NCBI RefSeq assembly: GCF_000190735.1
Contig: NC_015177.1
Location: 1,550,001-1,614,000 of the forward strand
DNA length: 64,000 nucleotides
Direction of reading: 5' to 3'
DNA from: Pseudopedobacter saltans DSM 12145
Lineage (GTDB): Bacteria; Bacteroidota; Bacteroidia; Sphingobacteriales; Sphingobacteriaceae
Shown here piece after piece: positions 8,118-35,313 of the stretch (within the stretch, counting starts at the first letter, position 1; each line of letters starts with the position of its first letter). Position numbers and translations under genes: made by a program. The notes under the pieces are model-generated. The model did no database searches. It was given only the letters and a program-made list of their open reading frames with translations, and had not been told where the DNA came from.

Positions 8118-9023
8118 ATGGAACCTAAAAGAGTCCTTCTGATCATTAACCATAAATCTGGAAATCAGAAAAGGGAAAATATAGAACATCTATTTGCTGC
8201 ACATATGCAAAAAAGACAAATGGACCATAAGGTTTTGGAACTCTCCGATCATCCTAAAACAGCAATTAACAACGAAATTAATTACTACAAACCCAATATT
8301 GTCATTGCCGCTGGTGGAGACGGTACAATAAATATGATTAGTGATGTTATCCAGTATAAAGATGTACTGCTGTTAATCTTTCCGTTTGGTTCTGCTAATG
8401 GCATGGCAAGGGATTTAAGCATGCCCACGGATTTTAATCAGGCGCTAAACTTATTGGAAAATGGTAAAGTGGTAAAACTGGATCTGCTGAAGATTAACAA
8501 CAATACTTCTGTACATCTGGCCGATGTAGGTCTTAATGCCCGGATAGTCAAACGTTTTCAGCTAGATAAAAAAAGAGGAATGCTGACTTACGCAAAATAT
8601 CTTTTTAATGAAATCTTCTATATCAGGAGCAAACGTTTCGTAATTTCTTATGAAAACATTGTACGTCGGGTGAAAGCGGTATCACTTACGTTTGCAAATG
8701 CAACGATGTATGGCACAGGTGCAGTTATTAATCCCGAGGGAAAGATGAACGACGGACTTTTTGAAATATGTATTGTAAAGCCTTTTCCGAAAATAAAGTT
8801 GCTTTCCATCGCTTTGCATATGTTTAAAGGGAGCCTATCTTATTCACAATTTTTTGAAACCATCCAATGCAGCAAAGCATTTATAAGCTGTCCGAGAAGA
8901 ACCCTTTTGCAAATAGATGGTGAAGTTATTGGTAAAACCAGTTCTATAGATTTGGAATGCATTCCGGCAGCCGTACAGGTTATTATTTCCAAAGACCTAC
9001 ACTATCCAACTCTGGTAAGCTAA
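8118..9023 (+). CDS. Diacylglycerol kinase family lipid kinase (YegS/BmrU-like)
   Basis: A 301-residue protein of standard length. The N-terminus NHKSGN and the nucleotide-binding GGDGT motif (66-70) followed by FPFGSANGMARDL define the DAGK catalytic domain; the C-terminal half is the beta-rich domain of YegS-like kinases, with DGLFEICIVKPFP and QIDGEV. It would phosphorylate a lipid hydroxyl such as diacylglycerol or a sphingoid base with ATP. Sphingobacteriaceae make sphingolipids, so either is possible. Its 3' end overlaps the convergent metallophosphoesterase gene by 27 bases. Confidence 0.9.
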   Translation: MEPKRVLLIINHKSGNQKRENIEHLFAAHMQKRQMDHKVLELSDHPKTAINNEINYYKPNIVIAAGGDGTINMISDVIQYKDVLLLIFPFGSANGMARDLSMPTDFNQALNLLENGKVVKLDLLKINNNTSVHLADVGLNARIVKRFQLDKKRGMLTYAKYLFNEIFYIRSKRFVISYENIVRRVKAVSLTFANATMYGTGAVINPEGKMNDGLFEICIVKPFPKIKLLSIALHMFKGSLSYSQFFETIQCSKAFISCPRRTLLQIDGEVIGKTSSIDLECIPAAVQVIISKDLHYPTLVS

Positions 9024-10034
9024 CTGCCCCATTTCGTTATACGGATTGGTAACTATAGCTTCTATTTTAATACTTTTATCTGTATAAAATTTAAGCAGAA
9101 AAAATCCTTTTGCAGAAAGTCCAAACTTCGAATACTTTCCTTTAATAACATAAGTAGATTTAGACGCCGCACCACTAATAATATGGTGTGTCCCGTATTT
9201 CTCTATATATTGCAGATTATGTTCATGCCCCGACACATACATAATTCCGGGATAACGCTTAAAAATAGCTTTCATTCGCTTGCGCAGATAACTATATTTT
9301 GGATGGGCGATATCTTCTTTTGCGCCTACATATTTTCTATATAAAGGAATTAATGAACCAACAAAAGGAAGTGGAACATAGGCCTTTTTTCTATAGAGTG
9401 TTAAAGGAAAAACATGATGCCTGATTTTGTATTTACCACCATGCATAGAATAACTATAAATTGGATGGTGGCCCAATATGATTATACGTTTATCCTGGTT
9501 TTCGGACACCATGGTATTTAGCTTTCTAAAAAAATCACGTTCGTTATCTATACATCCGCTTTTTATTCCAATCGGTTTATCTCCATCCTGCATCCACCAT
9601 TGTGTATCTATCGCTATTATACAAACATTTTCATTTTTGGTGATTTCTACGGGGCCAGGACACCCATTTTTGGGATAGAAAACCTGTTTGTTGAAAATGG
9701 TATTGAAATACTCTTCCTGACGGATGAGATATTGCCATCCGTCTTCCTTTCCTTTATTCCAATCGTGGTTTCCCGGAATAAAAACAACCTCTCCCGTATA
9801 ATTTTTTACGACTTCAAAATGTTTTTTTGCGATCTCTTCAGCTTCTTTCCGAGCAGTGTCGTTTGCAGCTGGCATTCCTTTCGGATAGATATTATCACCC
9901 AAGAAACATACGCAGGAATTTTCTTCTTTTGGCAAATGTTTTTTCAAAAGTTCGAGCAGCTTGTCTTCCTGCGCATATTTTATATTGCCAGAATCACCTA
10001 CTAATAAAACTTCATAACCAATTTTTTTGTGCAT
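8997..10034 (-). CDS. Calcineurin-like metallophosphoesterase
   Basis: A 345-residue protein without a clear signal peptide. The metal-binding motifs appear in order: GDSGN (13-17), GDNIY (46-50), GNHDW (88-92), GHHP (188-191) and GHEHN (269-273), the arrangement of the calcineurin-like superfamily and closest in style to purple acid phosphatase/TRAP-like proteins. It would hydrolyse a phosphoester with two metal ions; substrate unknown. Its 3' end overlaps the lipid kinase gene on the other strand. Confidence 0.9.
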   Translation of the reverse strand: MHKKIGYEVLLVGDSGNIKYAQEDKLLELLKKHLPKEENSCVCFLGDNIYPKGMPAANDTARKEAEEIAKKHFEVVKNYTGEVVFIPGNHDWNKGKEDGWQYLIRQEEYFNTIFNKQVFYPKNGCPGPVEITKNENVCIIAIDTQWWMQDGDKPIGIKSGCIDNERDFFRKLNTMVSENQDKRIIILGHHPIYSYSMHGGKYKIRHHVFPLTLYRKKAYVPLPFVGSLIPLYRKYVGAKEDIAHPKYSYLRKRMKAIFKRYPGIMYVSGHEHNLQYIEKYGTHHIISGAASKSTYVIKGKYSKFGLSAKGFFLLKFYTDKSIKIEAIVTNPYNEMGQLAYQSWIV

Positions 10035-10172
10035 TTAACAACAACAAACAGGTATTAAAAAAGATTTTATTTTTTTATAATAAAAAAATAATTTTTTATT
10101 TTTAAAGTTAACTAAACAAATTATTAAACCATTATTCAAACATGACAGGATAAAAATAACTTTTTATTGCCT

Positions 10173-10976
10173 ATGAAACAACGTATACTAATTATATTTA
10201 TAAGTTTATTAACTTCAAAAAGTAGCAAATCGCAATTCATTTCAGGGGCTAAATTCACCGCTCTTGCTAATGCGTCGGTAGCTCTACAAGACATTTGGTC
10301 GGCAAATGCAAATGCTTCTGGTCTTAATCAGATAAAGAATGTAACAGGAGGCATTTCTTACGAAAACAGATTTTCTGTGAGTGAGCTAAGTGGCAAGGCA
10401 GCAATAATAGCAATTCCATTTAAAAATTATATTGTGGGCATTAATTTCCAAAACTATGGTATACAGGAATTTGGAAGCATAAAATCTGGAATGAGTTTAA
10501 CCAAAAACTTTGGTTCTAAATTTTCTACCGCGATACGGCTCAACTATCATAGGTTACATATAGAAAATTATGAAAGTGAAATGGCTTTTAGTGTAGACTG
10601 CGGCATGCAAGTACAGGTAGCCAGCCGAATAAGGCTGGGAGCCCATATTGCCAACCCCAACCAAAGTTCTTTTAAAAGGATTCAGGATCAGAGTATCGAG
10701 TCACATATACGATTCGGAGGCTTTATTGGTATTAGCGATAAATTGTCCACCTGTGCCGAAATAGAAAAGTCAAACAACAAATCTTTGGATTATAAAATGG
10801 GCATAGATTACCAAATTGCTAATTTCTTTGCGCTAAGAGGTGGAATTTCTGTTAATTCATTCAGGCAATATGGCGGTTTTGGTATTAATCATAAAAGTTT
10901 GGCCGTTGATTTTGCCGTAAGCAATCATAAGTATCTGGGTTATTCACCTCAATTGGCTCTGGCTTATGAATTTTAA
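10173..10976 (+). CDS. PorV/PorQ-like outer membrane beta-barrel protein
   Basis: The ATG at 10173 is preferred; an in-frame TTG two codons upstream (10167) is less likely. The 267-residue product has a signal peptide (about 1-20) and begins ISGAKFTALANASVAL..WSANANASGL, the pattern of PorV/PorQ/FadL-type barrel proteins of Bacteroidota (usually GARxxALGGA...NPAGL). It continues as alternating strands and ends AYEF, an aromatic C-terminus fit for a barrel. It overlaps the next gene by 11 bases and leads an operon with the HhH/barrel protein and comEC. It could be an accessory outer-membrane component of that unit; function unproven. Confidence 0.75.
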   Translation: MKQRILIIFISLLTSKSSKSQFISGAKFTALANASVALQDIWSANANASGLNQIKNVTGGISYENRFSVSELSGKAAIIAIPFKNYIVGINFQNYGIQEFGSIKSGMSLTKNFGSKFSTAIRLNYHRLHIENYESEMAFSVDCGMQVQVASRIRLGAHIANPNQSSFKRIQDQSIESHIRFGGFIGISDKLSTCAEIEKSNNKSLDYKMGIDYQIANFFALRGGISVNSFRQYGGFGINHKSLAVDFAVSNHKYLGYSPQLALAYEF

Positions 10977-12996
10977 ACCTATTCTAATTGTTTTGATTGG
11001 TCTGAATATCCCTGTATTGCTTTTTGCACAAACTGTTGAAGACAAAATTGTGGAAAGTATGATAGAAAGTATGTCAGAAGAAACTCCCGAGGATTTCGAT
11101 TTTGAAGAACTTTCAGAACGACTGATTAAATATAGGAAATCGCCCATTAATTTAAATAAAGCAACCAGAGAGAAAATAAAGGAATTGCCTTTTTTAAGCC
11201 CTTTGCAGATAAGTAATTTATTGAATCATATACAAGCCAACGGTAAATTACTTGAAATTTATGAGTTGCAAAGTATAGATGCATTTGATCTGGAAACTAT
11301 CAGATTACTCCTGAATTTTGCGACAATAGATCCACCGGATGGTTTCGAAAACTTTTCTTTAAAACATCTATCTTCCGGAACCCATGACTTTCTTATTCGC
11401 TATGCCCGGATTCTAAAACAGCAAAAAGGCTTCACTATTCCAAAAGACAGCAATAAAAGCAGATACCTCGGTTCTCCCGATCGCTTATTTTATCGCTACC
11501 GTTTCAATTATAAGCAAAACATTCAATTTTCATTGAACATGGAGAAAGACGCTGGTGAGCATATCTGGGAGAAAAAATATGGCCCCGATTTTTTGTCTGC
11601 CAGCTTATTTCTTAAAGATCTGAAACCATTTTCTAAAATTGTAATAGGAGATTATTCCCTTCAGTTTGGACAGGGATTAAGTTTATGGAGTGGATTGAGT
11701 TTTGGTAAAGGTTCTGATATTTCGTCCATCGCTAAACAGGACTTGGGATTGAAGCCATACACTTCTGCAAACGAATATTCATTCTTTAGAGGATTAGCTA
11801 CAACAATTAATTTCGGTAAAATGCATTTTACTCCTTTTGTCTCGTTCCGAAAACTGGACTCCAGTATGGATACAGATTTAAACGGTAATCCCACTATAAA
11901 CAGCTTGCTGCAAAGTGGCTTACATAGAACACCTAATGAGTTGGCTAACAGACAAAATCTTGAACAACTGGTTTACGGAGCAAACATCGAATTTGAAAAC
12001 CGAAATTTCTCAATAGGTATCAATGCTTATAAAACTCAATTCAATATTCCGTTTCAGTCACAATCCCCTTTATACAAACAATTTGATTTTACAGGAAACG
12101 AATTGACAAATATTGGGCTTCATTATACAAAATCATTTAGAAATATTTACTTTTTCGGAGAAGCCGCCCGTAGCATGAACAGTGGATTTGCTTTTCTCAA
12201 CGGGGCTTTAGCCAGTTTGTCCAATAGCTTATCAGTAAGTGTTTTCCAAAGAAACTATCAAAAAAATTATCATTCTTTTTTTAATCAGGCTATTAGCGAA
12301 AATACTACAGCTTACAATGAGCGTGGGTTATATTATGGAATCAACTATAAACATGGAAAGAAGTATGATTTTTTATTTTATACCGATTTTTTTACGTTCC
12401 CGTGGTTGAAATATCGGGTGGATGCGCCATCTTCAGGACACGAAATTTTCGGACAGCTTAATTATATGCCTTCTAAAATCTTACAGGTTGTAATGCGCTA
12501 CAAGCTTAAAGAAAAGGAACAGAATAGTTCTGCAAATGGAATAGAAACTTATCGCAGGCAGACCTATCGGTTCGAACTTCAATATCAATTAAATAAAAGT
12601 TTTAGCCTTAAAAACCGAGCCGAAATCAGTCAGTATAAAACTTTATCATCACCTAATCAATATGGCTTTCTGGTATTTCAGGATATTAAATATTCGCCGT
12701 CCCGTTCCAAAATATCAGGAAATTTAAGATATGCCATCTTTGATACCGAAGGCTTCGACACACGGATATATACTTATGAAAACGACGTTTTATACAGCTA
12801 TTCCAATCCTGGATTTCAGAACAAGGGAATCAGGTTTTACCTTAACGGACGCTATCGGATAAAAAAAGGATTAGACTTTTGGCTAAAATACAGTATCAGT
12901 AAATACGATGAGGTTACCAGTATTGGATCTGGTTTGGATGAAATTATTGGAAACAGTAAACCTGAAATTAAACTTCAGCTTAGATATCAATTATAA
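10966..12996 (+). CDS. ComEA-like helix-hairpin-helix protein with predicted outer membrane beta-barrel
   Basis: A 676-residue protein. Residues 1-21 are a signal peptide (ends LLFAQ). Residues about 60-117 form one or two helix-hairpin-helix units, INLNKATREKIKELPFLSP followed by a second helix pair, as in the DNA-binding domain of ComEA. From about 140 to the end the chain is a run of alternating amphipathic strands with many aromatic residues and ends LRYQL, so an outer-membrane barrel is predicted. It overlaps the PorV-like gene by 11 bases and the comEC start by 1 base. Together these suggest DNA handling at the outer membrane. The HhH call is strong; the barrel is predicted by eye and the function inferred. 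Confidence 0.8.
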   Translation: MNFKPILIVLIGLNIPVLLFAQTVEDKIVESMIESMSEETPEDFDFEELSERLIKYRKSPINLNKATREKIKELPFLSPLQISNLLNHIQANGKLLEIYELQSIDAFDLETIRLLLNFATIDPPDGFENFSLKHLSSGTHDFLIRYARILKQQKGFTIPKDSNKSRYLGSPDRLFYRYRFNYKQNIQFSLNMEKDAGEHIWEKKYGPDFLSASLFLKDLKPFSKIVIGDYSLQFGQGLSLWSGLSFGKGSDISSIAKQDLGLKPYTSANEYSFFRGLATTINFGKMHFTPFVSFRKLDSSMDTDLNGNPTINSLLQSGLHRTPNELANRQNLEQLVYGANIEFENRNFSIGINAYKTQFNIPFQSQSPLYKQFDFTGNELTNIGLHYTKSFRNIYFFGEAARSMNSGFAFLNGALASLSNSLSVSVFQRNYQKNYHSFFNQAISENTTAYNERGLYYGINYKHGKKYDFLFYTDFFTFPWLKYRVDAPSSGHEIFGQLNYMPSKILQVVMRYKLKEKEQNSSANGIETYRRQTYRFELQYQLNKSFSLKNRAEISQYKTLSSPNQYGFLVFQDIKYSPSRSKISGNLRYAIFDTEGFDTRIYTYENDVLYSYSNPGFQNKGIRFYLNGRYRIKKGLDFWLKYSISKYDEVTSIGSGLDEIIGNSKPEIKLQLRYQL

Positions 12997-15062
12997 TGGT
13001 CAGTTTCTTTAAAGAAGAGATTCCCTTTTTTAGGCACATATGGTTCTTTATTGCAGGGATTGGTATCGCCATAAAGTACAATGTCAATTCTGCCTCAGAT
13101 CTCCCTCTACTCTATTGGATGTTCTTTTTCCTGTTTATTATTTTGTTTCTAATCATATCGAGACTAAAAAAGCTGTTCTTTTTAAACTGGATTGCCGGCG
13201 TCACGATAAGCTTATTATTTACACTTACGGGAATAATATGGTGTAATAGCTACAAAGAAATAGAGCGAAAAAATCATTTTTCTAAAGTCGAAGCTTCTCA
13301 TCTGATAGCCATAATCGAAGAACCTCCCAAACTAAAGGGGGACATAGCCAGATTCCCGGTTAAAGTAATTCAAAGCATCAATAACCAAACAATAACAGCA
13401 ACTCTAGGAAAATTATTACTTGCCTTACGCTTTGATACATTGCAAAAACCCAAACTGCAATATGGTGATCTTTTGCTTATTAAAGCCCATTACTCCGAAA
13501 CTGAACAGGCTTTCAATCCTGCTGAATTTAATTATAAACGCTTTTTATCGTATAAACAAATCTACCACCAAAGCTTTATAAACATCAAAGATGTTAAACT
13601 TTTAAAATCGGAGTGCGGTAATCCTGTTTTAGATTATTCCCTCAAATTCCGGGAGATATTGGTAAAAAAGTTCAAACAATATTTACCGGATAAAAATGCG
13701 CAGTCTGTTGCGTCTACACTGATTTTAGGAGACCGGGCCGAATTAGATCCTGAAATATTAAGTGCTTATCAAAACACGGGAACTTTACATGTACTATCGG
13801 TCTCGGGAATGCATGTTATGATCGTTGTATTTGTCCTGAATATATTGTTCAAACCTTTAGATAAGTTTAAAGCCGGTAGAATCGTCAGATTAATTTTCAT
13901 GTTAGTGCTTATCTGGACGTATAGTATCGTCACAGGCTTAGCTCCATCTATATTGAGAGCTGCCATAATGGTTAGTGTTGCTTTACTTTCAAAATTTTCC
14001 AAGGGTAAATCCAATAGTTATAATGTTTTGGCCATAGCAGCCTTTATTATTTTACTGGCTAATCCCTATAATTTAATGGATATCGGTTTTCAACTATCCT
14101 TTTTAGCGGTTTTAGGCTTAATTTATATTCATCCCAAACTGTATCAGTTATATAATCCTAAATATAAAATTGTCGATCTATGCTGGCAATGTATCTGCGT
14201 ATCCTTAGCGGCGCAGCTCGCTACTACACCCCTAAGTCTTTTTTATTTTCATCAGTTCCCTACTTATTTTCTTATCGGAAATCTGTTTATGGCTTTGCCC
14301 GCTACGATCATCATGATTGGCGGTTTTATATTTTTAGCTATTCCCATAGATATTGTGCAATATTGGTTGGGCCTCTTTCTTAGCTACTTTCTTAATTTCA
14401 CCAATCAGGGGCTAATTTATATCCAGCAATTGCCTTTTTCTACAGTCAATCAAATCTGGTTAACAGTAATTGATTTAATAGCTCTTTATCTACTTTTGAT
14501 ACTTCTTATTTATCCCAATAGTTATAAACAAAAACAAATAGCTATTTGCATAGTCTCTTTCATTTTATTCGTTTCATTTTCTAATAAAAACGTTAAATTA
14601 ATTAATCAACATAAAACGGTCTTCTTTTCACTCAGAAAAAATACAGCTATTGCTTATATCAAAGGAAAATCCTGTTTGCTGATAACAGATCTGGATACTA
14701 ACGACTACACCTACAAATTTTCGGTAAAGCCTTATCTGGATAGTTGCAAAATTAAGAGTATTAAATTTATAAACCCTCATTTAACAGAGCATGAAAACAT
14801 TTACTCATTTGGGGATAAAACGCTTAAGCTATTAAATCATCGGCAAAAGACTTTTCATAAATCCAATGTAGATTGGTTGCTGATTACCGGGAATAGGAAT
14901 TACCCTATAGCAGAATTATTGGAATACTATTCTTTTCAAAAACTACTTATTGATGGAAAAAATTCGGATTATAACATTCGAAAATTAACGTCACAAGCCG
15001 ATTTATTAAATCTTGACTACTATATTTTAAAAAGGAACTTTGCTAAAGAAATAGATCATTAA
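12996..15062 (+). CDS. comEC: ComEC/Rec2 family DNA uptake channel protein
   Basis: A 688-residue membrane protein. N-terminal membrane segments (about 10-85) are followed by a soluble DUF4131-type region (about 100-200) with AFNPAEFNYKRFLSYKQI, then the Competence domain with GDRAELDPEILSAYQNTGT (245-263) and LSVSGMHV (267-274), then many membrane helices. The C-terminal 170 residues sit where ComEC normally has a metallo-beta-lactamase-like nuclease domain, but no HxHxDH motif is present, so this part looks degenerate. ComEC carries single-stranded DNA across the inner membrane. Its ATG overlaps the stop of the HhH gene. Confidence 0.9.
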   Translation: MVSFFKEEIPFFRHIWFFIAGIGIAIKYNVNSASDLPLLYWMFFFLFIILFLIISRLKKLFFLNWIAGVTISLLFTLTGIIWCNSYKEIERKNHFSKVEASHLIAIIEEPPKLKGDIARFPVKVIQSINNQTITATLGKLLLALRFDTLQKPKLQYGDLLLIKAHYSETEQAFNPAEFNYKRFLSYKQIYHQSFINIKDVKLLKSECGNPVLDYSLKFREILVKKFKQYLPDKNAQSVASTLILGDRAELDPEILSAYQNTGTLHVLSVSGMHVMIVVFVLNILFKPLDKFKAGRIVRLIFMLVLIWTYSIVTGLAPSILRAAIMVSVALLSKFSKGKSNSYNVLAIAAFIILLANPYNLMDIGFQLSFLAVLGLIYIHPKLYQLYNPKYKIVDLCWQCICVSLAAQLATTPLSLFYFHQFPTYFLIGNLFMALPATIIMIGGFIFLAIPIDIVQYWLGLFLSYFLNFTNQGLIYIQQLPFSTVNQIWLTVIDLIALYLLLILLIYPNSYKQKQIAICIVSFILFVSFSNKNVKLINQHKTVFFSLRKNTAIAYIKGKSCLLITDLDTNDYTYKFSVKPYLDSCKIKSIKFINPHLTEHENIYSFGDKTLKLLNHRQKTFHKSNVDWLLITGNRNYPIAELLEYYSFQKLLIDGKNSDYNIRKLTSQADLLNLDYYILKRNFAKEIDH

Positions 15063-21445: not shown

Positions 21446-22204
21446 ATGGCTATCCGCGAAAAGCAAAAGGAAATCATCTCGCAACTACGCAAGAATATTC
21501 TTCACCTGGAGGGCTTCAGGCCTGAGCGTGAAGATTCATGTCTACGTATGGGTTTGGGTATTCTGGAGGATGCTTTTCCTTACGGAATATTTCCAAGGGC
21601 TGCCGTACATGAATTTTTGTGCCAGGAGGATGAAGAAGCTGCCGCTAGCAATGCCTTTTTGTCTGTAGTACTGGCCATGTTGATGCAGAGTCAGAAACCC
21701 TGTGTCTGGATCAGTCCTTTTCCCATGGTCTTCCCTCCTGCCCTTAAGAGTTTCGGTATCCATCCAGACCGCCTCATATTTGTGAGGTTGAACCGAGACC
21801 GTGACATTCTTTGGGCTATGGAAGAAGCACTGAAATGCAAGGGTTTGGCAGCTGTGGTTGCCGAGCTTCAGGAGCTCAGTTTCTCCCAATCCAGGCGTTT
21901 GCAACTGGCTGTAGAAAGCAGCAGGGTAAGCGGTTTCGTACTTCGCCGTGACACCAGGAAAATCAATACCACTGCCTGTGTGGCCCGCTGGCGCATCAGT
22001 CCGCAACCCAGCTTACTATTAGAAAAGGGATTGCCCGGTGTAGGCTTTCCCCAATGGCAGGTAGAACTTTTGAAAGTTAAGAACGGACAGCCGGGAAGCT
22101 GGAATATAGCATGGACACCGGAAGGACTTTTATTCGACAGACAGGAGAATACAGGGTTTTATCCTTTTGAGAAAAACAAGGAAGCCACAAAAACCGGAAG
22201 CTGA
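21446..22204 (+). CDS. imuA: ImuA, accessory protein of the error-prone mutasome
   Basis: A 252-residue RecA/SulA-like protein of Bacteroidota ImuA type. The pattern GLGILEDAFPYGIFPRAAVHEF near residues 36-57 and a following RecA-like core (KPCVWISPF, then RLIFVRLNRDRDILWAMEEAL) are characteristic. No intact Walker A P-loop is seen, as expected for this group. It overlaps imuB by 1 base (TGATG) and works with ImuB and DnaE2 in mutagenic repair after DNA damage. GC content and codon choice look higher than in flanking genes. Confidence 0.88.
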   Translation: MAIREKQKEIISQLRKNILHLEGFRPEREDSCLRMGLGILEDAFPYGIFPRAAVHEFLCQEDEEAAASNAFLSVVLAMLMQSQKPCVWISPFPMVFPPALKSFGIHPDRLIFVRLNRDRDILWAMEEALKCKGLAAVVAELQELSFSQSRRLQLAVESSRVSGFVLRRDTRKINTTACVARWRISPQPSLLLEKGLPGVGFPQWQVELLKVKNGQPGSWNIAWTPEGLLFDRQENTGFYPFEKNKEATKTGS

Positions 22205-23703
22205 TGCAAAAACGTTATCTATCCATATGGTTTAAATATCTGCTGCCCGATGCGCTGGCTATTCTGAGACCAGAATTGAAGGAGTTACCTTTGATTATAG
22301 TCGTAAAGGAAAGAGGCAGGCAATTGGTTAAATACTGTAATGACATAGCGCTTAAAGAAGGCATTAAAACAGGTATAACTGTCGCCGATGCCCGAGCTTT
22401 GGTCCCGGATATTATACTGGAAGATTATGAAGAAGGCAGCGAACGCCAGCTCTTGAAAGAGCTAGGGGAATGGTGCATCCGTTTTTCGCCCGCGGTAGCT
22501 ATTGATGGTAATGACAGCCTGCTTATAGACCTTAGCGGTTGCAGCCATCTCTGGAATGGGGAAATCCCTTATTTAAAGGATTTGCTCAACAGGCTCAAAG
22601 CCAAAGGCTACCATGTTCGGGGTGCTATTGCAGATACCATAGGCGCTGCCTGGGCCATTGCCCGCTTCGGCAAGGAAAAGGCAATTATTCCAGCTGGCGA
22701 GCAGTACCGTTTTCTTTTATCTCTGCCTCCAGCTGCCCTGCGCCTGGAAAGTACCCTGATACAGCGCCTGCATAAATTGGGAATGTACCGCTTGGAGAGT
22801 TTTATAGACTTGCCCCCATCGGTATTACGGCGGCGTTTTGGTGAGGATTTGCTGTTGCGTATTGCGCAGGCTTTGGGTCATGTGGAAGAGTTTTTAGATT
22901 TTATCTATATCCCCCAACCTTATACCGAACGTCTCCCCTGCCTGGAACCGATACGTACAGCCAAAGGTATTGAGCTGGCTATTGCCCAATTACTGGATGC
23001 CTTATGCTTTCGACTGCGCCGGGAAGGTATGGGCTTGCGGCAAGCTTTACTGAAATGCTATCGGGTAGATGGCCGGATGGTAACGGTTTCTATTGGTACT
23101 CATAAACCCTCACACCATATGGGACACCTGCAAAAGCTACTAGGCATGCGCATTGCACATATTGAACCGGCTTTGGGTATTGAACTGTTTATTTTAGAAG
23201 CTTCGGGTATAGAACCGATTGAGCTATCTCAACAGGCCATTTGGGCTATTAGTTCTGAAGCAGATGAACTGCTGGTTATTGAGCTACTAGACCGTATTGC
23301 TATGCGGGCCGGAAAGAATGCCATACAGCGCTTTCTGCCACAGGAACATTACTGGCCAGAGCGCTCGGTAAAGAGCGTTACCAACCTGGATGAACAGCCC
23401 TCAATTCCATGGTCTGTCTACAGGCCCCGGCCTACGCATCTACTAGCCTGTCCGGAACCTATCCGTGTTACTGCACCTATTCCAGACTATCCACCTATCC
23501 TCTTTATCTATAAGGGGAAGAAACATATTATTAAAAAAGCGGATGGCCCCGAGCGTATTGAAAGAGAATGGTGGCTGGAAGCAGGTGAACATCGCGATTA
23601 TTATACAGTAGAAGACGAAGCTGGCCGACGCTATTGGCTGTTCAGATCGGGCCACTACCATCACCAACAGGACCAATGGTTTTTACATGGATTTTTTGCA
23701 TAA
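22204..23703 (+). CDS. imuB: ImuB, Y-family polymerase-like mutasome scaffold
   Basis: A 499-residue Y-family polymerase homologue. The first strand reads SIWFKYLLPD where active Y-family enzymes have an Asp-x-Asp metal site, and the later acidic SxDE motif reads AIDGNDSLLIDLSGC, so catalysis is probably lost, as is known for ImuB. The palm/finger/little-finger region extends to about residue 340; the C-terminal tail (YYTVEDEAGRRYWLFRSGHY) is typical of the group. ImuB normally links DnaE2 to the sliding clamp. It lies between imuA (1-base overlap) and dnaE2 (8-base gap). Confidence 0.9.
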   Translation: MQKRYLSIWFKYLLPDALAILRPELKELPLIIVVKERGRQLVKYCNDIALKEGIKTGITVADARALVPDIILEDYEEGSERQLLKELGEWCIRFSPAVAIDGNDSLLIDLSGCSHLWNGEIPYLKDLLNRLKAKGYHVRGAIADTIGAAWAIARFGKEKAIIPAGEQYRFLLSLPPAALRLESTLIQRLHKLGMYRLESFIDLPPSVLRRRFGEDLLLRIAQALGHVEEFLDFIYIPQPYTERLPCLEPIRTAKGIELAIAQLLDALCFRLRREGMGLRQALLKCYRVDGRMVTVSIGTHKPSHHMGHLQKLLGMRIAHIEPALGIELFILEASGIEPIELSQQAIWAISSEADELLVIELLDRIAMRAGKNAIQRFLPQEHYWPERSVKSVTNLDEQPSIPWSVYRPRPTHLLACPEPIRVTAPIPDYPPILFIYKGKKHIIKKADGPERIEREWWLEAGEHRDYYTVEDEAGRRYWLFRSGHYHHQQDQWFLHGFFA

Positions 23704-23711
23704 GAGAGATA

Positions 23712-26700
23712 ATGGGCTATTCGGAATTACAGGTCACCAGCAATTTTAGTTTCTTAAGAGGAGCATCACATCCTGATGAACTGGTAGAAACAGCTGCCAG
23801 GTTGGGTTATGCCAAGATTGCCATTACAGATCGCAATACGCTGGCGGGCATTGTGCGTGGACATGTGGCTGCGCAGAAGCATGGCATAGGCTTTATTCCT
23901 GCCTGCCGTTTAGATTTATTGGATGGCCCGAGTCTGTTGGCCTATCCTACCGATCTGGCAGCCTACAGCAGGCTATCTTCTTTACTGTCTGTAGGAAACC
24001 TGAGGGCAGAAAAAGGGAAATGTTTACTATACCGACAGGATGTTTTTGAACATACCGAAGGTATCTTCTTTATTATTATCCCTCCTGCCGAACTGGATAG
24101 CAGTTTCAATTTTCCCGCTGATTTTACGGATGACCTGAAAGATTATCAGCAATATTTACCTTCGGACAAGCTCTTTCTGGCAGCTGTACGTAGCTATCAG
24201 GGAAACGACCAAAAGCGCTTGTACCGTTTGCAGCAATTATCTGACCGGTTGGGTATTCCTTTAGCCGCTACGAATGATGTGCATTACCATATAGCCGAAC
24301 GCCGGGAGCTACAAGACATCTTAACCTGTATCCGCGAGAAGTGCACCATCTACCAAGCGGGTTTTAAGCTACATGCCAACGCCGAGCGTCACCTGAAATC
24401 GGTAAAAGAAATGGAACGGCTTTTTATGCAGTATCCCGATGCTATTGCCAACACCCGAAAAATTGCCGACGTCTGCGATTTTTCACTAACTGATTTAAAG
24501 TATGTGTATCCTGATGAGCTAACCAGCGAAGGCCGTACACCGCAGCAGGAACTGGAATACCTGACCTGGATCGGCGCTCAAGAGCGTTTTGGTGAATCGA
24601 TTTCCCACGAACTTACTGAACAAATTGGCGAAGAGCTGGCCTTTATGAAGAAAAATAACCTGGCTAACTATTTTCTGACGGTGCATGACCTGGTACGTTA
24701 TGCCCGCAGCAAGGATATCCTGTGCCAGGGACGGGGATCAGCAGCCAATTCGGTGGTATGTTATTGCCTAGGAATTACTTCCGTTGACCCAACACGCATC
24801 AAACTGCTCTTTGCCCGCTTTATGTCTGATGCCCGCAATGAACCCCCGGATATTGATGTAGATTTTGAGCATGAGCGGCGGGAGGAGGTAATCCAGTACA
24901 TCTATGAAAAGTACGGACGCGACCGGGCTGCAGTAGTGGCTACCGTGACTCAGGAGCGTTACAAAGGCGCCATCAGGGATGTGGGGAAGGCTATGGGACT
25001 TTCTGTAGATACCATCAGCAGCCTTTCTTCAGGCGTTTGGCGCTATTCTTCTGAGTGGCTGGAAAATGTAGACTTGATTGAACAGGGCCTGAATAGTAAA
25101 GATCTACATTTACGCAAGACGCTGGATCTTACCCGTCAGCTGATGGGCTTCCCGAGGCAATTAGGGCAGCATACTGGCGGTTTTGTGATTACACAAGGCA
25201 AGTTATCCAACCTATGCCCTATTATGAATGCCCGCATGGAAGGACGCACCTGCATTGAGTGGAATAAAGAAGATATTGAGGCTTTAGGTTTTATTAAGGT
25301 GGATGTTTTGGCTTTGGGAATGCTTACCTGCATCCGCAAAGCCTTTAATTTGGCTAAAAAACATTATGGCCTCGACCTGAACCTGGCTGATATATCCAGA
25401 AATGAAGATAAACACCCGGAAGTATATGAGATGATCAGTCAGGCAGATACCATTGGCGTATTCCAGATTGAGAGCCGGGCGCAGATGTCTATGCTTCCAC
25501 GTTTAAAGCCCAAAAAATTTTATGATCTGGTGGTTGAGGTAGCTATTGTTCGTCCGGGCCCTATCCAGGGAGATATGGTGCATCCCTACTTATTGAGGAG
25601 ACAAGACCCAAGTCTTATAAAGTATCCTCCTAAACTGGAAAACATATTAAAAAGGACAAACGGTGTTCCGCTTTTTCAGGAACAGGCTATGGAAATTGCC
25701 ATTGTCGCCGCTGGCTTTACCCCTGCAGAAGCAGATGAACTGAGGCGTAGTATGGCCACTTTTAAATCGCATGGTAAGGTTAGTATATTCAGGCAGAAGC
25801 TGGTGGATGGCATGGTAGGCAATGGCTATGAAAAAGCGTTTGCAGAAAGGGTATTTAAACAGATTGAAGGTTTCGGTAGCTACGGTTTTCCCGAGAGCCA
25901 TGCAGCCAGTTTCGCCCTTTTAGTATATGTATCTTCCTGGATAAAATGCTATTATCCTGATATTTTTGCGGCGGCCATCCTCAACAGTTTACCTATGGGC
26001 TTTTACCAGCCTGCGCAATTGGTGATTGATGCTCGCAAGCATGGTGTGGAAGTTAGGCCTGTAGATATAAATTATTCTTTTTGGGATTATGTACTGGAAG
26101 AGCAGGCAGGAAAATACAGGGCGCTCCGGTTGGGTTTTAGACAAGTAAACGGTCTGAATATAGAGGACATGGAGTTATTGGTAGCCCACCGTAAGAAACC
26201 TTATAGTAATATTACACAATTGCTTAACATCGGTCTTTCTATTTCCTGCTTAGAAAAACTGGCTGATGCCGATGCTTTCCGCTCTATTGGCCTCGACCGG
26301 CGGCAGGCTTTATGGGAGATTGCTGCCCTGGCTGATAGTCCTCTTGCCTTGTTTGAAGGACAACCTTCCCAAAGTATGCTGGAACCACAGATTACCTTGC
26401 CACTCTTAACGAGTGGCGAACATGTGGTGCAGGATTACGTCAGCACATCCCTTTCACTAAAAGCACATCCACTTAATCTTTTACGCCAGCAACTGGACTT
26501 ATTAAAGGTAACCAGTACCAGAGATCTTGACGCAGTACCCGATGGTGCACAAGTAAAAGTGGCCGGACTGATACTCATCAGGCAACGACCCGGTACGGCC
26601 AAAGGAGTCTGCTTTATTACCATAGAAGATGAAACAGGCTACTCTAACGTAATAGTTTGGGAGAATTTATTTAATACCTACCGCAAGGAAATACTTACCG

Positions 26701-26873
26701 CCCGCTTACTCATGGTAGAAGGAATGTTGCAGAGAGAGGGCAAAGTGGTACATATTGTGGCTAAACGTTGCTTTGATCTTTCGGGACTTTTGCGGCAACT
26801 AAAAGGCAACAGCAGTGCTAGTGGTGTTTATGGAAAGAAGGAAGTTTTTCATAAAGGAAGGAATTTTAAGTGA
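23712..26873 (+). CDS. dnaE2: Error-prone DNA polymerase III alpha subunit, DnaE2
   Basis: Start chosen at ATG 23712 (MGYSELQVTSNFSF), 8 bases after the imuB stop and behind a purine-rich AGAGAGATA; the longer frame from 23634 overlaps imuB and lacks homology-like sequence. The 1053-residue protein has an N-terminal PHP domain (ITDRNTLAG, ATNDVHYH), the C-family polymerase core with PPDIDVDFEHERREEV (two catalytic Asp) and GRGSAANS, the finger/helix-hairpin region (GSYGFPESHAASFALL) and a C-terminal OB fold. Length and partners mark DnaE2 rather than replicative DnaE1. It performs translesion synthesis with ImuA and ImuB. Confidence 0.94.
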   Translation: MGYSELQVTSNFSFLRGASHPDELVETAARLGYAKIAITDRNTLAGIVRGHVAAQKHGIGFIPACRLDLLDGPSLLAYPTDLAAYSRLSSLLSVGNLRAEKGKCLLYRQDVFEHTEGIFFIIIPPAELDSSFNFPADFTDDLKDYQQYLPSDKLFLAAVRSYQGNDQKRLYRLQQLSDRLGIPLAATNDVHYHIAERRELQDILTCIREKCTIYQAGFKLHANAERHLKSVKEMERLFMQYPDAIANTRKIADVCDFSLTDLKYVYPDELTSEGRTPQQELEYLTWIGAQERFGESISHELTEQIGEELAFMKKNNLANYFLTVHDLVRYARSKDILCQGRGSAANSVVCYCLGITSVDPTRIKLLFARFMSDARNEPPDIDVDFEHERREEVIQYIYEKYGRDRAAVVATVTQERYKGAIRDVGKAMGLSVDTISSLSSGVWRYSSEWLENVDLIEQGLNSKDLHLRKTLDLTRQLMGFPRQLGQHTGGFVITQGKLSNLCPIMNARMEGRTCIEWNKEDIEALGFIKVDVLALGMLTCIRKAFNLAKKHYGLDLNLADISRNEDKHPEVYEMISQADTIGVFQIESRAQMSMLPRLKPKKFYDLVVEVAIVRPGPIQGDMVHPYLLRRQDPSLIKYPPKLENILKRTNGVPLFQEQAMEIAIVAAGFTPAEADELRRSMATFKSHGKVSIFRQKLVDGMVGNGYEKAFAERVFKQIEGFGSYGFPESHAASFALLVYVSSWIKCYYPDIFAAAILNSLPMGFYQPAQLVIDARKHGVEVRPVDINYSFWDYVLEEQAGKYRALRLGFRQVNGLNIEDMELLVAHRKKPYSNITQLLNIGLSISCLEKLADADAFRSIGLDRRQALWEIAALADSPLALFEGQPSQSMLEPQITLPLLTSGEHVVQDYVSTSLSLKAHPLNLLRQQLDLLKVTSTRDLDAVPDGAQVKVAGLILIRQRPGTAKGVCFITIEDETGYSNVIVWENLFNTYRKEILTARLLMVEGMLQREGKVVHIVAKRCFDLSGLLRQLKGNSSASGVYGKKEVFHKGRNFK

Positions 26874-33282: not shown

Positions 33283-35313
33283 TTAATCGTAGAAATTCCA
33301 ACTTAAGCCAAAACGTGCTACAGAATAAGGCATTGGATATCTGTCGACAGTATAATACCCCCTGGAGAAAAGCCCCTTGTTCAGATAATCATAACGTACA
33401 AACAGGTTTGCCCGTTTCCAGTTAGTTCTTACCCAGGCATCAACTATCGGCCAGGTATCAAATCTTGTATTGTCTTTATTATAAAACTGTCCGATATCAG
33501 GCGCATATGAGTTTGCGGTATATTTTCCAAAATATTTAATATCAAAACCAAAGTCCATCTTTAATACTTTAAAAAGATCCTGATGCATATACAAGCTGTG
33601 GAAAGTGTATATTTCCGGCGTCCTCAGTACAGATTCATAATCTGTTTTCTGATAAACAATATAATTTTCCAGTGTCAGCTTGCCTACATGAAAATCTTTG
33701 GACAATGTTAGTTTCAGCATATTGATATTTCCTGAAACTTGCGCCGGAGTAATGTCGCCATTAGCATCGGCGCCAAAGTATAAATAATTACTCACTAAAA
33801 AATATTCAGCTTTAGCTTTTAAATCAAACTTGGGATTACTGTATGCAAAAGATAGATTCTGGGTTTTCGTCCTGTCGAAATTCAAATCCCATCGACGGTG
33901 ATTGCTCGTTTGCATCTCGTAATTTACAGCCGGACTTTGGTTCTGGGAATAAGCCCCCAGGAAAATACTTCCTACCGAATTGCTCAATTTCACTTCTGAA
34001 TTTGCTTCGTACAGAAAATCTCCTATATAGGGTCCCTGAAAGATCTGCTGCAGACCAACATTCAGGTTTATCCTATTACTAAGACCATAGGTTACATTTC
34101 CTTTTAAGGTTAATGTTTGGAAATTTTTATTGTAAGTGTACTGATTGTATCTGTAATAATCCTGAACCAGCCCTGCGTTTACTTTTACCTCGTTTTTTAA
34201 GAAAGAAATCCGTTTCCCTCTGATATAAAAGCTATAGGCAAACTCGTTGCGAACGTGATCTAACCGAGTAGAATCAGAAGTAGAATCCTGGTAAATGTAG
34301 TAGTTTTTAAAAAGCCCTGTGGTGTCTACCCTCCCGTATCTAAAATTATATTTTTGTCTGTTATAAGAGAAAGCATAGCTAACCCTTTGCGTGGGTAGGG
34401 CAACTTCTCCGCTATCAACTAAACGTTGTTTTCCTATGTTATAAAATTGCTTAACAAAAATGGTATTGTTTTTAACGTTATGTCTCGCATTACCAGCTTC
34501 GCGGCTATTATATAATCTTGTCCGCTCGAAAAGAGGCTCTACAATGGTTTTTGCTGTAAAAACACTATCGTTGAAAATAGACCCGGTTTCATTACTTTTA
34601 ATTGTATTGAAATTAGCACTTACCAGTAAAGTATAACGTTTACTTTTAGATTGGTACCAGTTCCATAGAGAGGCATTTAAAATATCCGAAACCTGCCCCG
34701 CATAATATCCCTGTGAACCGGTTTTTGCATATTTTGCTCCCATATTCCAGTTAGGTTTGATATTCTGGCTATGCAAAACATGAAACATTTCTTCCTGTTT
34801 TCCTCCAAATGGAGATACATAATACAACTCTGTATATCGCGCTCTGGCCTGATAATATTTAATATCCTGAGGTCCTTCTATATACCTATCAAAATAATGC
34901 AAGCCTATATCAAACCCGATATCTTTACGCGGCTCGAATAACATTGGACGGAACGCCATACCCAATACACCTAAATTCATAGTGGGACTATGTGGATCAT
35001 TGAGCGGATTAAAATGCTGAAAGTCTTTGGCTGTTGTATCCAAATTAAATAATCTGGTACTATCTTCTAAAAAAGCTGCTTTTGTAAATTTAATATACTT
35101 AGCATTAAAAACAACAGAGTCTTTTTTACCGTCCAGCTGTTTACGTAAGGAATCGACACTAATATCCCGATTGGAAGTTGGCTTATTTGTACTTGTAGTA
35201 TCAAAACCAAAACCATCGTTTCTCCTCAATGTAGATCCAAACTGGGCGAAAGCCTGCAATGTATTGACTAAAATAAAAAACAGGAAAAATATCTTTCTGA
35301 GCATATTATACAT
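33283..35313 (-). CDS. Putative outer membrane porin (Porin_10 family)
   Basis: A 676-residue protein with a signal peptide (ends QAFAQ), followed by an Asn/Thr/Ser/Asp-rich linker and then an unbroken series of amphipathic beta strands to the C-terminus (ARFGLSWNFYD), matching the Bacteroidota putative porin family. Two starts are possible: ATG 35313, overlapping the PNP stop by 8 bases, or ATG 35304, just after it, which gives a more normal signal peptide. Substrate unknown; it may serve purine nucleosides given its PNP neighbour, but that is only positional inference. Confidence 0.85.
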   Translation of the reverse strand: MYNMLRKIFFLFFILVNTLQAFAQFGSTLRRNDGFGFDTTSTNKPTSNRDISVDSLRKQLDGKKDSVVFNAKYIKFTKAAFLEDSTRLFNLDTTAKDFQHFNPLNDPHSPTMNLGVLGMAFRPMLFEPRKDIGFDIGLHYFDRYIEGPQDIKYYQARARYTELYYVSPFGGKQEEMFHVLHSQNIKPNWNMGAKYAKTGSQGYYAGQVSDILNASLWNWYQSKSKRYTLLVSANFNTIKSNETGSIFNDSVFTAKTIVEPLFERTRLYNSREAGNARHNVKNNTIFVKQFYNIGKQRLVDSGEVALPTQRVSYAFSYNRQKYNFRYGRVDTTGLFKNYYIYQDSTSDSTRLDHVRNEFAYSFYIRGKRISFLKNEVKVNAGLVQDYYRYNQYTYNKNFQTLTLKGNVTYGLSNRINLNVGLQQIFQGPYIGDFLYEANSEVKLSNSVGSIFLGAYSQNQSPAVNYEMQTSNHRRWDLNFDRTKTQNLSFAYSNPKFDLKAKAEYFLVSNYLYFGADANGDITPAQVSGNINMLKLTLSKDFHVGKLTLENYIVYQKTDYESVLRTPEIYTFHSLYMHQDLFKVLKMDFGFDIKYFGKYTANSYAPDIGQFYNKDNTRFDTWPIVDAWVRTNWKRANLFVRYDYLNKGLFSRGYYTVDRYPMPYSVARFGLSWNFYD

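What the first reader, a model, noticed from the sequence alone, without database searches (positions are those of the whole stretch)
10173..15062. Predicted DNA-uptake unit: PorV-like protein, ComEA-like HhH joined to an outer-membrane barrel, and ComEC
Three genes overlap by 11 and 1 bases. The middle one joins a ComEA-type helix-hairpin-helix segment to a long predicted beta-barrel, putting a DNA-binding domain on an outer-membrane protein directly upstream of the inner-membrane DNA channel. This suggests a secretin-independent route for DNA across the outer membrane in Bacteroidota. No known pilus or secretin gene is nearby.
Basis: partly seen in the sequence, partly recalled or inferred. 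Interest (0 to 1): 0.78.

Follow-up and report, generated by a model that had tools for sequence, protein, structure and literature searches.

The report
Outer-membrane barrel beside DNA-import gene
A Bacteroidota bacterium carries, overlapping its DNA-import channel gene, a widespread but unstudied large outer-membrane barrel with a ComEA-like foot; it is a good, untested candidate for how these bacteria bring DNA through their outer membrane without the usual pilus pore.

Summary
In detail: three + strand genes (10173-10976, 10966-12996, 12996-15062) overlap by 11 and 1 bases. Gene 1 is a 14-strand PorV/FadL-type barrel. Gene 2 is a signal peptide, an acidic leader, a ComEA-like HhH domain and a predicted 24-26-strand barrel (mean pLDDT 81.7). 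Gene 3 is ComEC without a nuclease domain. The complete genome has no secretin hit.

The barrel is widespread (211 of 296 phylum genomes at E<=1e-20) and its usual upstream partner is the PorV-like gene. The comEC link is confined to the Sphingobacteriaceae branch (69 of 95 loci). DNA binding by this HhH is doubtful: the GxG hairpins are lost and the region is slightly acidic, while a membrane-anchored 3xHhH protein elsewhere in the genome is basic and canonical.

Distribution separates the parts. The barrel occurs without type IX secretion (63 of 64 genomes of one family) and is missing where that system is present (0 of 35 strong hits). The PorV-like neighbour was seen only in genomes with SprA (34 of 34). 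A family without ComEC also lacks the barrel (7 of 7).

Best reading: outer-membrane component of DNA uptake, with the PorV-like protein as a surface accessory. No experiment supports this yet.

The parts
10173..10976 (+). PorV-like 14-strand outer-membrane barrel, 267 aa (alternative TTG start at 10167)
   Evidence: NCBIfam PorV_fam E 1.3e-6, below cut-off; 28 of 33 alignment members match PorV_fam at E<=0.001; model pLDDT 92.6, best Foldseek hits 8gl6_F and 6h3i_F of T9SS complexes
10966..12996 (+). HhH-barrel protein, 676 aa
   Evidence: one match in the genome
10966..11028 (+). signal peptide of the HhH-barrel (residues 1-21, by eye, near ..LLFAQ)
   Evidence: read from the sequence; no signal-peptide tool was run
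11032..11139 (+). acidic leader, residues 23-58, net charge -7
11140..11319 (+). ComEA-like HhH domain, residues 59-118, hairpins degenerate, net charge -1
11374..12993 (+). beta-barrel, residues 137-676, 24 strands of 8 or more residues plus short ones
12996..15062 (+). ComEC, 688 aa, DUF4131 + Competence, no metallo-beta-lactamase domain hit
13719..14513 (+). Competence (ComEC core) domain, residues 242-506

Best explanation
The 676-residue protein is an outer-membrane component of the DNA-uptake pathway that feeds ComEC. Shown here by computation: its barrel model, its one-base overlap with comEC, its usual PorV-like neighbour, its phyletic pattern. Inferred: the wide barrel gives DNA a passage (or forms the frame of one) across the outer membrane. 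The N-terminal HhH domain stands in the periplasm and probably acts as a plug, dock or gate rather than as the main DNA binder. The inner-membrane-anchored, basic 3xHhH protein encoded elsewhere in the genome receives the DNA and hands it to ComEC. The PorV-like 14-strand barrel is an accessory that sits beside the big barrel, as PorV does with SprA and BamG with BamA, and holds a surface protein, possibly one exported by the type IX system.
For: Operon: overlaps of 11 and 1 bases; comEC directly downstream in 69 of 95 loci, median gap 0, 2 changes on the gene tree. Domain: HHH_3 in 19 of 24 family members at E<=0.01; ComEA is the best PDB sequence match. Barrel: pLDDT 81.7; best Foldseek hit is chain B of the Mtr complex 6r2q, E 5e-13 (that this is MtrB, a 26-strand barrel, is recalled); FimD usher aligned over 371 residues, Z 14.2, rmsd 3.8. 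Barrels of this size could hold DNA (recalled, not computed). Lumen-facing strand residues, estimated by parity, hold 27 K+R against 15 D+E. Presence: barrel hit in 229 of 288 genomes with ComEC and 1 of 8 without (Fisher p 1.4e-4); with strong hits only, 210 of 288 against 1 of 8 (p 8e-4); neither is corrected for relatedness. Seven of these eight are one family, f52, with genomes of normal size. G022, G341 and G558 also lack the barrel and have no, or only a broken, comEC. Not type IX: barrel in 63 of 64 SprA-less genomes of family f32 and 0 of 35 strong hits in SprA-bearing families f19+f20. No secretin hit in the genome. The outer-membrane step of competence in P. gingivalis is stated as unclear in PMC11532111.
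Against: No experiment. The comEC link is confined to one family. The HhH region lacks the canonical hairpins in the window protein and is net negative in all 16 Bacteroidia rows tested; the window's HhH is not among the 5 HHH_3 matches of its own genome. The barrel's net charge is positive in 15 of 16 Bacteroidia rows but ranges from -18 to +27 over all 35 rows. ComEC without a barrel hit is common: 59 of 288. 28 of 55 good-quality class genomes without a strong barrel hit also lack a strong Riemerella-type receptor, and 26 of these 28 still have a ComEC hit over the cut-off. Two genomes have the barrel but no ComEC hit, G299 and G373, in 290 and 150 contigs. Five of 11 barrel-bearing genomes tested have a secretin. 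Co-loss rests on few independent events, three of them in small genomes (0.5-1.7 Mb). Downstream of the unit lie envelope or sugar genes (sulfatase, GH130, glycosyl transferase), which could hint at another role.
Confidence: 0.48

Rival explanations
1. A general outer-membrane barrel (porin, polyanion or polysaccharide exporter, surface-assembly factor) whose HhH domain is a protein-protein module; its place before comEC in one family is incidental.
For: comEC link only on the Sphingobacteriaceae branch; in other families neighbours are housekeeping genes (AIR carboxylase, PurK-type ATP-grasp, adenylate kinase, EPSP and DHQ synthase families); best VIA-align hits by Z are AlgE, the alginate exporter, Z 16.5, and one of 24 members touches PgaA_barrel, E 0.0012; slightly acidic, hairpin-less HhH; sulfatase, GH130 and glycosyl transferase genes downstream in the window.
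Against: A ComEA-like domain fused to the barrel is shared by 19 of 24 members, and GIG hairpins survive in distant members L212, L217, L224, L228; no barrel hit in the seven ComEC-less f52 genomes.
Confidence: 0.28
2. A type IX secretion accessory: PorV-like carrier plus a large barrel that receives or anchors type IX cargo.
For: The PorV-like partner is a true PorV/FadL-type protein and was not found beside the barrel in the 5 SprA-less genomes checked, while all 34 genomes that have it have SprA. Outside the class a DUF4835-like gene lies beside the barrel in 12 of 19 loci, 11 of them with the PorV-like gene; DUF4835 is listed as a hypothetical T9SS component in PMC9722745.
Against: The barrel itself is present in 63 of 64 SprA-less f32 genomes and in SprA-less G042, G269, G277, and has no strong hit in 35 SprA-bearing f19+f20 genomes. 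This fits the PorV-like accessory, not the barrel.
Confidence: 0.12
3. The barrel acts in DNA uptake only as a scaffold, while DNA crosses by another receptor, such as the Riemerella RS04915/RS04920-type TonB-like pair.
For: RS04915 and RS04920 are essential for transformation in R. anatipestifer (PMC8459023); strong matches to the RS04915-like profile occur together with the barrel in 45 class genomes. The own genome has a more distant relative of that receptor (858-aa frame, two pieces, E 2e-72 and 1.2e-46).
Against: In good-quality class genomes strong receptor matches are commoner where the barrel is missing (27 of 55) than where it is present (45 of 231, not corrected for relatedness). 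The own genome's relative is of a second kind that genomes with the strong receptor also carry (e.g. G142), and none of the own genome's three DUF5689 hits lies near it.
Confidence: 0.12

Closest known systems
ComEA (periplasmic/membrane HhH DNA receptor)
   Same: HHH_3-type domain; ComEA is the family profile's best PDB match (8dss, E 0.003)
   Different: fused to a 540-residue barrel; GxG hairpins absent and net charge -1 here; the genome has a separate basic 3xHhH protein
Riemerella anatipestifer transformation genes RS04915/RS04920/RS02645 (PMC8459023)
   Same: outer-membrane route proposed without a secretin in Bacteroidota; RS02645 is a 3xHhH protein like the one in this genome
   Different: RS04915-like proteins are CarboxypepD_reg (some with Plug) proteins of 862-954 aa, unlike the HhH-barrel in domains
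T9SS PorV-SprA and Bacteroidota BamG-BamA
   Same: a 14-strand FadL/PorV-type barrel paired with a larger barrel (passages of PMC10994853, PMC12611786, PMC12578637); T9SS PorV chains are the top structural hits of gene 1
   Different: the large partner here is an HhH-barrel, not SprA (36 strands) or BamA; physical pairing is inferred from gene order only
Mtr-complex and FimD-type large barrels
   Same: best Foldseek hit (6r2q_B) and longest good VIA alignment (FimD)
   Different: about 10 % identity; fold similarity shows no shared function
PilQ-type secretin of type IV pilus DNA uptake
   Same: would do the same step, DNA across the outer membrane
   Different: no secretin hit in the genome; single-chain barrel predicted instead of a multimer

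Membership tests
ComEA | HHH_3 domain above the curated cut-off | tested here: not met
   window protein 18.1 bits against 27; 19 of 24 relatives match at E<=0.01; distant members in G139, G171, G102, G156 score over the cut-off
ComEA | canonical GxG DNA-binding hairpins | tested here: not met
   PFLSP and IDAFD in the window protein; GIG in the second hairpin of L212, L217, L224, L228 (meaning of the motif recalled)
ComEA | small periplasmic or membrane-anchored protein | tested here: not met
   fused to a barrel
outer-membrane beta-barrel | barrel in a confident model | tested here: met
   pLDDT 81.7, 24 strands of 8+ residues; 422 PDB chains at E<=0.001, the 50 listed being outer-membrane barrels. 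Closure was not inspected in coordinates
PorV/PorQ family | NCBIfam NF033709 above cut-off | tested here: not met
   28.3 bits against 90 for the window protein; best alignment member E 8.5e-21, 28 of 33 match at E<=0.001
PorV/PorQ family | 14-strand FadL-type barrel like PorV | tested here: met
   (8gl6_F E 1e-9, TM 0.79 by query length)
PorV/PorQ family | binds type IX cargo | not testable with these tools
   only indirect: found beside the barrel only in SprA-bearing genomes
ComEC | Competence domain above cut-off | tested here: met
   200 bits against 23
ComEC | C-terminal Lactamase_B domain (not in all ComEC) | tested here: not met
   no hit at E<=1; DUF4131+Competence is reported as the main profile in Bacteroidetes (PMC6299819, passages)
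secretin-based DNA uptake | secretin gene in the genome | tested here: not met
   0 hits in G000; 7 of 21 tested genomes have one, 5 of them among the 11 barrel-bearing ones
type IX secretion component | barrel occurs with SprA | tested here: not met
   barrel in 63 of 64 SprA-less f32 genomes; 0 of 35 strong in f19+f20 with SprA
Riemerella RS04915-type receptor | CarboxypepD_reg/Plug domains | tested here: not met
   no such family among those listed for 24 HhH-barrel members at E<=0.01

The most novel reading that the evidence does not exclude
The HhH-barrel is the old, secretin-independent outer-membrane DNA-uptake pore of the Bacteroidota and allied classes: a self-contained barrel with its own ComEA-derived periplasmic plug, feeding ComEC. 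In type IX-bearing lineages it works with a PorV-like subunit that displays a type IX-exported surface DNA receptor, and in several lineages it was replaced by the TonB-like RS04915/RS04920 pair.
Probability: 0.25. Interest if true: 0.85.

Novelty: new variant of a known kind. Interest (0 to 1): 0.62.

Why it matters
How DNA crosses the outer membrane in Bacteroidota is an open question in print: for P. gingivalis import into the periplasm 'remains unclear', T2SS and T4SS are said not to be identified and the pilus not to be involved (PMC11532111, passages). This protein family has hits in 230 of 296 sampled genomes of the phylum, 211 of them strong, and overlaps comEC here. I saw no description of it in the listings or in the passages read (open-access library only). 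It makes the question testable with one gene deletion. It also adds a third candidate case of a PorV/FadL-type barrel paired with a larger outer-membrane machine.

Tried and rejected
Rejected: a phylum-wide comEC operon (link found only on the Sphingobacteriaceae branch; 0 of 19 loci outside the class). Rejected: strict mutual exclusion between the barrel and the Riemerella-type receptor (45 class genomes have both, 28 good-quality ones neither). Rejected: the barrel as a type IX part. YbaJ and TomB hits at residues 493-545 are weak, the YbaJ one in one of 24 members only, and taken as chance. The viral structure library gave weak hits, the named ones mostly porins and other barrels. Literature searches on Chlorobaculum and on Bacteroidota outer-membrane channels listed nothing on this protein. 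Families missing from the fold lists are not excluded.

Thresholds: 'strong' barrel hit means E<=1e-20; by it 19 of the 230 hits and 10 of the 268 are weak. The weak ones are probably the separate HhH protein or fragments; this was not checked one by one. 'Strong' RS04915-like match means E<=1e-110 in one piece; the next best genome scored 2.7e-96, so genomes with more distant relatives, the window's own included, count as negative. 'Good quality' is at least 90 % complete and at most 5 % contaminated.

Rows with HhH-barrel ORFs under 500 aa were left out (99 rows kept) and loci without enough flank were not scored (95 scored upstream, 95 downstream, 92 both). L221 has no HhH region in its ORF.

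Not done: search of type IV pilus ATPases; SprA status of the named Pedobacter and Sphingobacterium genomes without a PorV-like gene; comparison with the R. anatipestifer sequences themselves (homologues identified by domains and adjacency only).
Full report
1. What is there. Three + strand genes overlap by 11 and 1 bases at 10173-15062. The window lies in a 4.6 Mb, one-contig genome with a single match to the middle gene. By the gene tree the host is a Sphingobacteriaceae member near Pelobium and Pedobacter arcticus (54 % identity to the latter, the best among the tree's rows). The upstream neighbour at 8997-10034 is on the other strand and the downstream sulfatase gene starts 212 bases after comEC, so the unit is probably three genes. 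Beyond it lie GH130 and glycosyl transferase genes.

2. Gene 1, PorV-like. NCBIfam PorV_fam matches at E 1.3e-6, far below its cut-off, but 28 of 33 members of the alignment match it at E<=0.001, best 8.5e-21. The profile finds PorV of the solved T9SS translocon as the best PDB sequence (E 9e-7 over positions 1-102). The model (pLDDT 92.6, 14 strands) has T9SS complex chains 8gl6_F and 6h3i_F (PorV) as the two best fold matches, followed mostly by FadL-type proteins and small porins. A chain of the F. johnsoniae BAM complex also appears (9n2d_B, rank 36).

3. Gene 2, HhH-barrel. The model (24-row alignment, pLDDT 81.7, pTM 0.82) shows N-terminal helices to residue 137 and then a barrel. 24 strands are 8 residues or longer and further short ones make 26 possible. 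Best Foldseek hit: chain B of the Mtr complex (E 5e-13, TM 0.41). VIA-align ranks AlgE and OprD-type porins highest by Z (16.5 downward, about 300 residues aligned, rmsd near 6) and aligns FimD over more of the chain (Z 14.2, 371 aligned, rmsd 3.8). The fold match says 'large barrel', no more.

4. The HhH domain. HHH_3 is below cut-off in the window protein (18.1 of 27 bits) but is found in 19 of 24 relatives at E<=0.01 and above cut-off in distant members. The family profile's best PDB match is ComEA. The two hairpins that carry GxG in ComEA (recalled) read PFLSP and IDAFD here; GIG in the second hairpin survives in four distant members. Net charge of the HhH region is -1 in the window protein and negative in all 16 Bacteroidia rows; it is positive in 5 of the 18 other rows that have the region. 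The leader before it is acidic in all 35 rows. By contrast the genome's separate 294-residue protein at C1:2646333-2647217 (- strand) has three HHH_3 stretches (E 5.6e-30), an N-terminal hydrophobic anchor, a KGIGPAYA hairpin and net charge +15. It is the better ComEA. I therefore do not expect the barrel's HhH domain to be the main DNA binder.

5. Gene 3, ComEC. Competence and DUF4131 domains are clear and Lactamase_B gives no hit. This profile is described as the main one in Bacteroidetes (PMC6299819, passages seen). DprA is present elsewhere in the genome.

6. Gene order. In 30 loci of relatives with 1.5 kb flanks, comEC is found beside the barrel in all 22 of the window's family and in none of 8 from other families of the class; the PorV-like gene is found in 28 of the 30. 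In the larger set, comEC follows in 69 of 95 loci, the PorV-like gene precedes in 68 of 95, both in 40 of the 92 scored for both, and one locus has neither. The comEC link changed twice on the tree, most simply one gain at the Sphingobacteriaceae branch and one loss in Parapedobacter. In 19 loci chosen outside the class, the PorV-like gene is adjacent in 12 and comEC is in none.

7. Distribution. The barrel profile hits 230 of 296 phylum genomes at E<=0.001, 211 at E<=1e-20, and 268 of 335 class genomes, 258 at E<=1e-20. ComEC: 288 of 296. Barrel hit given ComEC 229 of 288, without ComEC 1 of 8 (p 1.4e-4; strong hits 210 of 288 against 1 of 8, p 8e-4; not corrected for relatedness). Seven of the eight are family f52, which has SprA and genomes of 2.8-3.9 Mb. 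Among 60 further genomes, G022 and G341 lack both, G558 lacks the barrel and has only a broken ComEC trace, G370 lacks the barrel and has ComEC in two pieces, and G373 has the barrel without a ComEC hit. Most barrel-less genomes still have ComEC, so the barrel is not the only route, or not all ComEC serve uptake.

8. Not a type IX part. SprA is in 228 of 296 genomes. Families f19 and f20 (35 genomes) all have SprA and no strong barrel hit; two have weak hits. The PorV-like neighbour behaves otherwise: of 49 genomes with both data, 34 have it and all 34 have SprA; of the 15 without it, 5 lack SprA (p 0.0016, not corrected for relatedness; three lineages). Outside the class a DUF4835-like gene lies beside the barrel in 12 of 19 loci (two confirmed by Pfam, the rest by BLAST), 11 of them among the 12 with the PorV-like gene. 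DUF4835 is listed as a hypothetical T9SS component in PMC9722745 (one table line seen). So the barrel is the core and the PorV-like protein an accessory of type IX-bearing lineages.

9. The known Bacteroidota system. In R. anatipestifer (PMC8459023; abstract, passages and discussion read) ComEC, DprA, ComF, RecA, a 3xHhH protein, an outer-membrane CarboxypepD_reg protein (RS04915), a DUF5689 protein (RS04920) and a DUF1343 protein are essential. I identified RS04915/RS04920-like pairs by domains and adjacency in 14 of 16 loci fetched for strong DUF5689 hits and the own genome's best one; 11 also have a divergent Exo_endo_phos_3 gene. Among 286 good-quality class genomes a strong receptor match occurs in 27 of 55 without and 45 of 231 with a strong barrel hit. 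This hints at replacement in some lineages. It is not exclusion, and relatedness is not corrected for. The window's genome has only a more distant relative of the receptor (858-aa frame, E 2e-72 and 1.2e-46 in two pieces).

10. Secretins. None in the own genome; 7 of 21 genomes tested have one, 5 of them among the 11 that carry the barrel. Whether those secretins serve DNA uptake was not studied.

11. Mechanism, with status. Shown by computation: barrel model, gene order, partner, phyletic pattern, no secretin here. Inferred: passage of DNA through or beside the barrel; HhH as plug or dock; handover to the 3xHhH protein and ComEC; PorV-like protein as surface dock by analogy with PorV-SprA (PMC10994853, passages) and BamG-BamA-BamH (PMC12611786 and PMC12578637, passages). 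What drives DNA inward is unknown here; ComEA-type ratcheting is the default (recalled).

12. Verdict. A real, conserved outer-membrane family, undescribed in what I could search, with a plausible role in DNA uptake.

Noticed in passing
window 21446-26873 (+): 252-aa ORF without Pfam hit, a 499-aa IMS-domain protein and a 1079-aa DNA polymerase III alpha with HHH_6 in a row: looks like an imuA-imuB-dnaE2 mutasome cassette (name recalled; domains).
   Followed up: no
window 33283-35313 (-): Another putative outer-membrane protein of 676 aa, Porin_10 (E 1.9e-145), next to a nucleoside phosphorylase and an LpxK gene.
   Followed up: no
L173-L188, e.g. L175:2741-3802 (-): The Riemerella-type transformation receptor pair has a divergent Exo_endo_phos_3 gene (possible nuclease) nearby in 11 of 16 loci.
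   Followed up: partly
L232:5334-6218 (-), G000:C1:2646333-2647217: 3xHhH ComEA-like protein with an N-terminal hydrophobic anchor in the window's own genome, net charge +15.
   Followed up: yes
L212-L228: DUF4835-like gene divergent from the PorV-like/HhH-barrel genes outside the class Bacteroidia (12 of 19 loci).
   Followed up: partly
G138, G253, G300, G562, G581 (genus g27 of the window's family): These genomes keep comEC but have only weak barrel-profile hits and no strong Riemerella-type receptor match; how they would take up DNA is unexplained. In G253 and G300 neither barrel nor PorV-like gene lies near comEC.
   Followed up: partly
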